Assembly (NCBI GenBank): GCA_022820125.1 | Contig: JAJEGA010000033.1 | Coordinates: forward strand, 1-64,000 | DNA length: 64,000 nt | DNA from: Anaerolineae bacterium | GTDB lineage: Bacteria; Chloroflexota; Anaerolineae; Aggregatilineales; Phototrophicaceae | Direction: 5' to 3' | Part shown: piece by piece, positions 1 through 46,315 of the stretch | Position numbering within the stretch: position 1 is the stretch's first letter | Layout: every line of letters starts with the position of its first letter | The notes under the pieces: model-generated | What the model was told of the DNA's origin: nothing | Database searches by the model: none | The model's input: the letters and a program-made list of their open reading frames with translations, nothing else | Translations under genes and position numbers: made by a program

Positions 1-139
1 AGGGCGATGCTAATCTGATTCGAGATCTGTAGGGGCGAGACTTGTCTCGCCCACTATGTCGCCATTGTACATGTGGGCGACTCAAGAGTCGCCCCTACGA
101 CGTTCCTTCATTTTGTTGCATTACTTTATTGGACTTACT
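1..139. repeat. 139-bp direct repeat, copy 1 (two-hairpin element)
   Basis: Matches 9209-9347 in the same orientation with one difference in 139 bases (G at 115, A at 9323). The core at 29-98 starts GTAGGGGCGA and ends TCGCCCCTAC. It holds two perfect 9-bp hairpins, GGGCGAGAC-TT-GTCTCGCCC (33-52) and GGGCGACTC-AA-GAGTCGCCC (75-94). The window edge cuts the left side, so the repeat may be longer. No credible gene is inside it. Confidence 0.95.
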
Positions 140-9107: not shown

Positions 9108-9208
9108 AAACTGCGCGAAACGCTCCCTAAAACTTGGCAGTGCATCCATTTCGGTGGAAATAGAAAAAGCTTTACCACAGAAGTAAACGCAAGTAAGTCA
9201 TGCGAAAA

Positions 9209-9347
9209 AGGGCGATGCTAATCTGATTCGAGATCTGTAGGGGCGAGACTTGTCTCGCCCACTATGTCGCCATTGTACATGTGGGCGACTCAAGAGTCGC
9301 CCCTACGACGTTCCTTCATTTTATTGCATTACTTTATTGGACTTACT
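9209..9347. repeat. 139-bp direct repeat, copy 2 (two-hairpin element)
   Basis: Near-identical to 1-139. Core 9237-9306 with both hairpins intact. Sits in the 537-bp gap between 9107 and 9645. Apart from this repeat and the hairpin at 9561-9580, nothing recognisable is seen in the gap. Confidence 0.95.
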
Positions 9348-18728: not shown

Positions 18729-18809
18729 CGCCACGACCTCGATTCAAATTCATGCACAACAACCATTATAGCCCGACTTAATCAAGTTGGAAAATTATGC
18801 TGAAATGGG

Positions 18810-19083
18810 CAGGGCAATCGCAACAAACTGGCATCCGCTGCGACGAGCAAAACTAAACTGAAATTTAACCACCGAGGACACCGAGAGCGCCGAGAAATGC
18901 GTTTGATCAGAGATTTCACAGCATTTTGTCACAATATTTAGACGAGAAGAAAGTTTATCGACAAGGTAGCGGTATGCCTGCCTAATTCAAGCAGTGGATT
19001 TAGGAGAAGAGTCGTCAAAAGAACCTAAACTCGGTGTACTCGGTGTACTCGGTAGTAAAGAAAAATTTGATGCGATTGCCCTG
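18810..19083. mobile_element. MITE-like element, 274 bp, CACCGAGG core
   Basis: Terminal inverted repeats CAGGGCAATCGCAACAAA (left) and TTTGATGCGATTGCCCTG (right). Flanks CTGAAATGGG (18800-18809) and CTGAAGTGGC (19084-19093) match at 8 of 10 positions, so they look like an aged 10-bp target duplication. The interior has inverted ACCACCGAGGACACCGAG and CTCGGTGTACTCGGT motifs. No transposase reading frame. Same ends as the 193-bp elements at 24571 and 39003. Confidence 0.8.
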
Positions 19084-19212
19084 CTGAAGTGGCGCGCAAA
19101 CCAGCGCTGGCAATCTTCGAAAGCCGTCAGCCTGCCTCGAGTTGGCGCGGAGGGCACGGTCGGAGGCAGCGCCGCCGCGGCCGCCTTAAAAATGCAGGAC
19201 AAGGCTGCCCGG

Positions 19213-24570: not shown

Positions 24571-24763
24571 CAGGCCAATCGCGCCAAAATCATAATGCGC
24601 CGTTCGCCACGAATATTGTGAAAATGTAGGGGCGTATCGGCGATACGCCCATTGAATATGACATAAATTTTGCGGGCGTTTCAGCGAAACGCCCCTACAG
24701 ATTACGAAATGTGAGGGAAGATTTTTATTTATCAGCGCAATTTCATTTGATGCGATTGCCCTG
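24571..24763. mobile_element. MITE-like element, 193 bp, GTAGGGGCG core
   Basis: Ends CAGGCCAATCGCGCCAAA and TTTGATGCGATTGCCCTG. Same length (193 bp) as 39003-39195 and near-identical to it in inverse orientation. Flanks CTGGGCAATG and ATGGGCGATG agree at 8 of 10 bases. The interior holds a two-hairpin unit (24626-24698) with stems GGGCGTATC/GATACGCCC and GGGCGTTTC/GAAACGCCC. No coding capacity. Confidence 0.85.
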
Positions 24764-39002: not shown

Positions 39003-39195
39003 CAGGGCAATCGCATCAAATGAAACTGCGCATATAAATAACAATTTTCCCTCACATTTCGTAATCTGTAGGGGAGTTTCGCTGCAACGCCCGCAAAATT
39101 TATGTCATATTCAACGGGCGTATCGGCGATACGCCCCTACATTTTCACAATTTTTGTGGCGAACGGCGCATTATGATTTTGGCGCGATTGCCCTG
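39003..39195. mobile_element. MITE-like element, 193 bp, inverted relative to 24571
   Basis: Ends CAGGGCAATCGCATCAAA and TTTTGGCGCGATTGCCCTG. Flanks GGCTTCAATT (38993-39002) and GTCTTCAATT (39196-39205) match at 9 of 10 positions: the clearest target duplication in the set. The two-hairpin unit spans 39068-39140; one stem has decayed (GGGGAGTTTC against GCAACGCCC). Confidence 0.88.
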
Positions 39196-46089: not shown

Positions 46090-46315
46090 CAGGGCAATCG
46101 CGGCAAAATGATGTCGCATGGGATGACGAATAATCAAACTGAAATTCAACCACCGAGTACACCGAGTTAAGTTGAGGACACAGAGATATTGGTATTTTCG
46201 ATCTTTTCTCAAACATCTGACGCCGCCACAAAGCCTAAACTGTCTATACAGATTTTCTCTGCATTCTCTTTTCTCTCGGTGTCCTCGGCGGTAATAATTT
46301 GATGGGATTGCCCTG
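46090..46315. mobile_element. MITE-like element, 226 bp, CACCGAGT/CTCGGTG core
   Basis: Ends CAGGGCAATCGCGGCAAAA and TTTGATGGGATTGCCCTG, as in 18810-19083. The interior has ACCACCGAGTACACCGAG and CTCGGTGTCCTCGG motifs in inverted order. Flanks GCTGAATCGC and CCTTATTTGC match only at 6 of 10, so the target duplication is not convincing. No coding capacity. Confidence 0.75.

What the first reader, a model, noticed from the sequence alone, without database searches (positions are those of the whole stretch)
18810..19083. Second MITE subtype with the same ends but a CACCGAGG core (18810, 46090)
The 274-bp and 226-bp elements carry the TIRs of the 193-bp family but a different interior with inverted ACCACCGAGGACACCGAG/CTCGGTGTCCTCGG motifs. 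One set of ends with two unrelated cores implies that the ends capture or exchange interiors.
Basis: seen in the sequence. Interest (0 to 1): 0.55.

Follow-up and report, generated by a model that had tools for sequence, protein, structure and literature searches.

The report
Small jumping DNA with docking repeats
These are small, gene-less jumping DNA pieces whose interiors carry a short repeat, seen in many unrelated bacteria, at which other mobile elements insert, one kind apparently guided by its own RNA.

Summary
Window 18810-19083 (274 bp) and 46090-46315 (226 bp) share 12-bp ends CAGGGCAATCGC with the 193-bp elements but have different interiors. Copies in this genome make 10-bp target duplications (39 of 61 elements at 9/10 or better; shuffled mean 0.7). 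A congener holds an intact ISAs1-family IS with identical ends and a 10-bp duplication, so these are ISAs1-type MITEs; no ISAs1 transposase was found in the window's own assembly. At least four unrelated interiors (X, W, Z, Y) occur, in mosaic combinations; two Y mosaics carry duplications, so mosaics moved as units. The CACCGAG motif is not a core but a 9-nt tandem array, AACCACnGAG-nnCACnGAG, also found without the ends and in genomes of more than ten bacterial groups. Other elements insert into it: module Y (6 of 9 two-sided junctions fit one fixed site) and an IS110 element whose presumed bridge-RNA guide matches the array: guide ACAGAG with CTCTGTG sites, ACCGAG with CTCGGTG sites (18 of 18 right ends, six genomes). 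So interiors change at least partly because the array is a docking site; "capture or exchange" is right, the proposed mechanism only partly. RNA guidance and mobilisation are inferred, not shown.

The parts
18800..18809 (.). left copy of the 10-bp target duplication, ctgaaatggg
   Evidence: agrees with 19084-19093 ctgaagtggc at 8 of 10
18810..18821 (+). left terminal inverted repeat CAGGGCAATCGC
   Evidence: exact
18822..18866 (+). end module B (TIR-proximal segment shared by the 274-bp family)
   Evidence: alignment of 26 copies
18867..18894 (+). left 9-nt tandem array AACCACCGAG-GACACCGAG-AGCGCCGAG
   Evidence: unit number differs by 9 bp in four of 26 copies
18895..19029 (+). interior X
19030..19056 (-). 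right, inverted array CTCGGTGTACTCGGTGTACTCGGTAGT
19072..19083 (-). right terminal inverted repeat
   Evidence: exact
19084..19093 (.). right copy of the target duplication, ctgaagtggc
46090..46101 (+). left TIR of the 226-bp element
   Evidence: exact
46148..46166 (+). left array AACCACCGAGTACACCGAG
46167..46274 (+). interior W, unrelated to X
46275..46292 (-). right inverted array CTCGGTGTCCTCGGCGGT
46304..46315 (-). right TIR, one mismatch; no target duplication recognised for this copy
24571..24763 (-). 193-bp element with same ends and interior Z (GTAGGGGCG palindromes)
39003..39195 (+). 193-bp element with same ends and interior Z; duplication 9 of 10
9182..9347 (+). module Y in an array-like unit, TTACCACAGA|Y|GAGGGCGC, outside any CAGGG element
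   Evidence: found as repeat D1
1..139 (+). second Y copy, cut by the window start (also the contig start)

Best explanation
The elements are non-autonomous ISAs1-type MITEs. An ISAs1-family transposase acting in trans is inferred to move what lies between two CAGGGCAATCGC ends, leaving a 10-bp duplication. Just inside the ends the 274- and 226-bp types carry a short tandem array of 9-nt units, AACCACnGAG-nnCACnGAG-nnCACnGAG. This array is not part of the IS: it is a dispersed repeat of many bacterial genomes. In this genus it serves as a docking site. A small element Y enters a unit (CACAGA|Y|GAG). An IS110 element and its recombinase-less derivatives enter at CTCnGTGnn-CT-CnGTGG, apparently directed by a bridge RNA whose two target guides match the array. 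Docked modules then travel with the MITE, giving one set of ends with many interiors; recombination between arrays probably adds to this. Shown: ends, duplications, mosaics, junctions, guide/target agreement. Inferred: ISAs1 mobilisation in trans, the bridge RNA itself, and how the array spreads.
For: Duplications: 39 of 61 paired elements agree at 9/10 or better and 21 exactly; other lengths give 4 or fewer; shuffled pairing mean 0.71, max 4. Intact ISAs1 in congener G030: 1245 bp, both ends CAGGGCAATCGC, flanked by AATCTGTGCC on both sides; transposase NF033564 E 7e-123, PF13808 and PF01609. X, W, Z, Y mutually unrelated by blastn (best E about 0.01, Z-Y, a shared palindrome); Y occurs with X, with W, with module B and with the array alone. 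Y mosaics L089 and L091 have 10-bp exact and 9-bp duplications. Y left junctions visible in 13 copies: 7 follow CACAGA, 2 ATACAGA, 4 GTCCTC in the other orientation; of 9 copies with both junctions visible 6 fit a clean insertion in one unit with GA repeated. IS110: G017 protein hits NF033542 (RNA-guided) and PF01548/PF02371. Of 21 distinct right ends printed, 17 abut CTCTGTGG or CTCTATGG (G000, G004, G017, G022, G023) and 4 abut CTCGGTGG (G007, G020). The right guide reads TACAGAG or GACAGAG in G000, G017, G022, G023 and TACCGAG or AACCGAG in G007, G020. Leaving out G004, whose guide is unreadable: 14 and 4 ends, Fisher 3e-4 by end. An ISAs1-type end (up to 2 mismatches) lies within 110 nt of 9 of 22 IS110 right-end loci.
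Against: No ISAs1 transposase in the window's own 95%-complete assembly and in only 6 of 34 genus genomes; multi-copy IS may be lost from such an assembly. Interiors X, W and Z have no visible docking junction; Z elements lack the array. Y: 3 of 9 two-sided copies do not fit a clean insertion (L027, L091, L202), and 4 of 15 right junctions are not GAG or TCTGTG. Predicted folds of the supposed bridge RNA differ between copies, no Rfam family matches, and I did not recognise a left donor guide. Guide/target agreement rests on two array variants in six genomes of one genus: Fisher by genome 0.067, so shared descent is not excluded. An earlier count that included G004 gave 0.048. Two IS110 left junctions (G023 L347, G022 L345) are not clean array sequence; 13 of 22 right-end loci show no ISAs1-type end nearby.
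Confidence: 0.65

Rival explanations
1. Homologous recombination or template switching between array copies swaps interiors; site-specific docking plays a minor part.
For: Arrays lie inverted on both sides of X and W; unit number changes by exactly 9 bp in 4 of 26 aligned copies. In L091 arrays point inward on both sides of Y, which a single insertion in one unit does not give.
Against: IS110 right ends join the array at one position after a CT core (21 of 21 printed) and 6 of 9 two-sided Y copies fit one site. Z elements lack the array yet share the ends.
Confidence: 0.35
2. The MITE families arose separately, by internal deletion of different ISAs1 elements that happened to share ends; no exchange of interiors.
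For: MITEs are often deletion derivatives of IS (recalled); ISAs1 copies with differing subterminal sequence exist in the genus.
Against: The 60 end bases of four ISAs1 copies printed do not resemble modules B, Z or the array by eye (no alignment was run). Y shared between otherwise different elements requires exchange or insertion.
Confidence: 0.2
3. The array is a functional host site (protein-binding or terminator-like) and mobile elements merely exploit it, as IS621 exploits REP sequences.
For: Present in many bacterial groups without conserved flanks; an inverted partner within 250 nt in 30 of 85 copies, against 61 of 800 random windows of the same loci.
Against: Very uneven: 169 of 201 Chloroflexota genomes have no exact match and 17 have two or more; unit letters differ between genomes. 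Gene context and expression were not tested.
Confidence: 0.3

Closest known systems
ISAs1-family IS and its MITEs
   Same: identical 12-bp ends, 10-bp target duplication, ISAs1 transposase in a congener
   Different: no transposase found in the own assembly; interiors hold dispersed repeats and docked modules
IS621 and other IS110 elements that target REP sequences (PMC11208160: passages read; Choi 2003 and Tobes 2006 seen there as references only)
   Same: DEDD and Transposase_20 recombinase, CT core, left and right guides in the left non-coding end, a repeated sequence as target
   Different: target is a 9-nt tandem array in MITEs and alone; recombinase-less derivatives keep the guide region; the right guide differs with the array variant
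IS4321/IS5075 (IS1111 group), which insert in Tn21-family end repeats (title seen in the reference list of PMC11208160)
   Same: an element of this kind targets part of another transposon
   Different: target here is a subterminal array, not the terminal repeat
TIMEs and mosaic non-autonomous transposons (PMC4133298: title and start of abstract seen)
   Same: miniature elements giving rise to mosaic non-autonomous transposons
   Different: Tn3-derived there, ISAs1-type here

Membership tests
ISAs1-type MITE | short, no transposase gene, bounded by terminal inverted repeats | tested here: met
ISAs1-type MITE | ends match those of an ISAs1-family IS | tested here: met
   G030 L168 642-1886, both ends exactly CAGGGCAATCGC, transposase NF033564
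ISAs1-type MITE | target duplication of the same length as the IS | tested here: met
   10 bp in 39 of 61 MITEs and in L168; 9 bp in L162 and L163. That ISAs1 duplicates 8-10 bp is recalled.
ISAs1-type MITE | a matching transposase in the same genome | tested here: not met
   PF13808 no match in G000; 127 contigs, 95% complete, so absence is not proof. This lowers the claim that the family is now active there, not the end and duplication match.
ISAs1-type MITE | mobilised by that transposase | not testable with these tools
   needs a transposition assay
IS110 (docked element) | DEDD plus Transposase_20 recombinase | tested here: met
   G017 protein; in the own genome only the ends match, not the gene
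IS110 (docked element) | short core shared by element and target at both junctions | tested here: met
   CT at both junctions
IS110 (docked element) | bridge RNA with target guides complementary to the site | tested here: inconclusive
   guides match and differ with the target variant; folds differ; no RNA data
REP/RAYT repeats (considered for the array) | single short palindrome spread by a RAYT (Y1) transposase (recalled) | not tested
   the array is a tandem 9-nt repeat; inverted partner near in 30 of 85; no RAYT search made

The most novel reading that the evidence does not exclude
The array AACCACnnAG-nnCACnnAG-nnCACnnAG is an undescribed class of short dispersed repeat present in many bacterial phyla, with a largely genome-specific pair of letters in its units, that acts as a shared landing pad for mobile DNA, including RNA-guided IS110 elements whose guides track the local letters.
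Probability: 0.35. Interest if true: 0.82.

Novelty: new variant of a known kind. Interest (0 to 1): 0.6.

Why it matters
It offers a concrete way in which MITEs gain new interiors: they carry a target site that other elements recognise. It gives a natural set of IS110 guides and targets that differ at one base, useful for testing how guides and targets evolve together. And it points to a short repeat, spread unevenly over many bacterial groups, that I did not find described in the papers searched and whose mode of spread is an open, testable question.

Tried and rejected
The motif as an ISAs1 part: rejected, since it occurs without the ends and in many unrelated genomes. X and W as diverged versions of one core: rejected. 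The contig-end sequence beginning TTGTTCGCCCGTG as an autonomous ISAs1: rejected, it is an IS110 right end. Transposase in the own genome: PF13808 gave nothing. Agreement of unit letters within one copy: not significant on loci chosen by the motif (31 of 44 against shuffled mean 27.1, max 33; viral loci 15 of 22 against 12.5, max 18), so I claim only that letters differ between genomes, as far as searches list places. Rfam: no match for five IS110 loci. Literature by letters: (17 strings) gave two papers, both unrelated by title and opening lines. ISAs1 with MITE: (none); IS110 with MITE; bridge RNA; dispersed repeats; chimeric MITEs. 'Not found in print' means in this open-licence library by these searches only.

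Rows dropped or merged: of 72 end pairs, 11 were left out of the duplication count by length: ten taken as chance pairings and one (L021, 472 bp) a composite of two adjacent elements. One of 27 rows (L091) was dropped from the X alignment for lacking X. In one search, loci L460-L486 (unlisted viral stretches) were left in the own-genome set by mistake; one row, L460, comes from them and is to be ignored. In one search the right end of L103 was merged with L092, whose first flank bases are identical. In one search, 8 of 27 rows are other palindromes, not Y, and its left-junction pattern presupposed CAGA or CCTC, so I read the left junctions from the unconditioned list.

Full report
The window is C45:1-64000 of an unnamed 4.2-Mb, 127-contig genome, 95% complete. 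A named genome, Anaerolineae bacterium jk18x27bins.46, carries a 274-type sequence (L300), so the host is probably a related Anaerolineae. No gene calls were made around the elements; mechanical ORFs of 90 aa or more overlap parts of both.

Observation. The two elements and the shared ends are real. A genome search scored 40 of 146 candidate places for the 274-bp element; 39 of these cover 226 bp or more at 83-100% identity. For the 193-bp element it scored 40 of 276 candidates. The 226-bp element has one near-full relative (C80, 86%) and one partial (C40, 84%). The lists are capped, so copy numbers are lower bounds. The TIR 12-mer occurs 289 times at up to one mismatch, 15 for the control.

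What moves them. Of 72 end pairs 90-700 bp apart, 61 were kept. 39 have flanks equal at 9 or 10 of 10 bases; no other duplication length exceeds 4. The window copies give 8 of 10 (18810), 9 of 10 (39003), 8 of 10 (24571) and nothing recognisable (46090). PF13808 is absent from the own genome and present in 6 of 34 genus members. In G030 an intact 1245-bp IS has both ends CAGGGCAATCGC, a 399-aa ISAs1 transposase and a perfect 10-bp duplication. A 164-nt query made of the end, the array start and the IS110 end matched 27 of 61 genomes, own included, all in one genus of 34; in G017 and G023 the listed matches cover only the IS110 part. ISAs1-type MITE is the best label; that ISAs1 ends begin with CAGGG is recalled.

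Interiors. Twenty-six complete X copies align end to end. X, W, Z and Y share no meaningful similarity. Left ends B (274) and D (226) are alike. Y appears attached to X, W, B or the array alone. L089 (250 bp) and L091 (284 bp), both Y mosaics, have 10- and 9-bp duplications, so mosaics transposed after forming.

The array. The CACCGAG motif is a run of 9-nt units; four of the 26 X copies differ by exactly one unit. Of 95 exact motif sites listed in the genome, 20 lie outside the copies known then. I fetched all 20: one (L215) has an ISAs1-type end (1 mismatch), 19 have none within 2 mismatches. Two of those (L204, L222) sit in a different element with GAGTGGC ends. The 80 listed titles name Planctomycetes, Chloroflexi, Bacteroidetes, Acidobacteria, Verrucomicrobia (Opitutales, Spartobacteria), Parachlamydiaceae, Gemmatimonadetes, a Microcoleus, alpha-, gamma- and deltaproteobacteria, WOR-3, Cloacimonadota and Aminicenantes. 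My own rough chance expectation is about one. Records not labelled MAG (Paraglaciecola, Lacimicrobium, Psychromonas) are among them, so it is not only an artefact of binning. Flanks are not conserved; a third unit follows in 76 of 127 copies in those loci. Forty-four of those genomes, chosen because they have the motif, hold 1 to 526 copies of AACCACNNAGNNCACNNAG, control 0 or 1 per strand. In an even draw of 201 Chloroflexota genomes (own included) 32 have a match: 17 have two or more (up to 102) and 15 a single one; single control hits occur in 7, so the singletons may be chance. Unit letters differ by genome: mostly GA in G138, G206 and G214 as far as listed, AG in G073 and G093, CG or AG here. 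The 21-mer also occurs in 118 stretches of viral contigs.

Docking of Y. Of the Y copies whose left junction is in sequence, 7 follow CACAGA, 2 ATACAGA and 4 GTCCTC, the other orientation. Of 15 right junctions listed, 8 continue with GAG and 3 with TCTGTG, 2 are near this and 2 are not. Of 9 copies with both sides visible, 6 read as insertion at CACA-GA-G with GA repeated (L033, L053, L090, L214, L223, window 9182); L027, L091 and L202 do not. In L091 arrays point inward on both sides of Y, which suggests recombination between arrays or loss of X. The window holds Y at 1-139 (cut) and 9182-9347.

Docking of IS110. Several own contigs end inside a MITE array at the same sequence. A congener shows why: G017 has a 1.5-kb IS110 with a 422-aa open frame matching the RNA-guided transposase model, lying between AACTCTGTGTC-CT and CT-CTGTGGTTAA. 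Shorter forms without the gene, 358-431 bp as measured through the first flank bases, are whole in G023, G022 and G007. In the own genome only left- and right-end sequence matches, none of the gene. The left end has GATCCC-[guide]-TTGGCA...TGCCC-[guide]-TTTGGGAC. By eye the left guide resembles the bases before CT, and the right guide is the complement of the bases after it, with one G-U pair. Right guides with ACAGAG are in genomes whose right ends abut CTCTGTGG (14 printed ends in G000, G017, G022, G023); right guides with ACCGAG in those abutting CTCGGTGG (4 ends in G007, G020). Three G004 ends abut CTCTGTGG but its guide is unreadable. Fisher is 3e-4 by end but 0.067 by genome. Left junctions: 11 of 13 with a readable guide are clean array sequence; G023 L347 and G022 L345 are not. 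This is the pattern expected of bridge RNA (PMC11208160, passages read), but folds are not uniform and the elements are related by descent.

Reading. The ends supply mobility, the array supplies a landing site, and docked modules supply some of the new interiors; recombination between arrays probably supplies others. Ends and duplications are well supported, docking fairly, RNA guidance is likely but unproven, and how the array spreads between bacteria is unknown.

Noticed in passing
L347 1502-1861, L345 1193-1623 (reverse), L348 1440-1797: Recombinase-less IS110 derivatives that keep the left end with its guide region and the right end; ends of such elements recur in the own genome. Not met in the paper searches made.
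   Followed up: partly
L097 1566 on, L099 1534 on, L144, L152, L153 (own contigs C47, C58, C105, C10, C5): A further recurring sequence TCCCTCGCAAGTCACG... starts right after AACCACAG of MITE arrays in five contigs; another element that joins the array, unidentified.
   Followed up: no
L204, L222, L139, L141, and near L223: A second MITE-like type with GAGTGGCGATTATCG...AATTAGCCACTC ends also carries the array, with IS110 or Y at some copies.
   Followed up: no
window 24617-24663 and 39103-39149; Y modules: Interiors Z and Y contain GTAGGGGCG...CGCCCCTAC palindromes, which from recall are also common dispersed repeats in other bacteria.
   Followed up: no
L369-L448: The array 21-mer is in 118 stretches of IMG/VR contigs (80 listed), so phages or mis-binned host DNA may carry it.
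   Followed up: no
G238 C1:3875221-3875978: AACCACGGAGCACACAGAG copies, several spaced 75 bp apart, in a Chloroflexota genome; looks like a larger tandem array.
   Followed up: no
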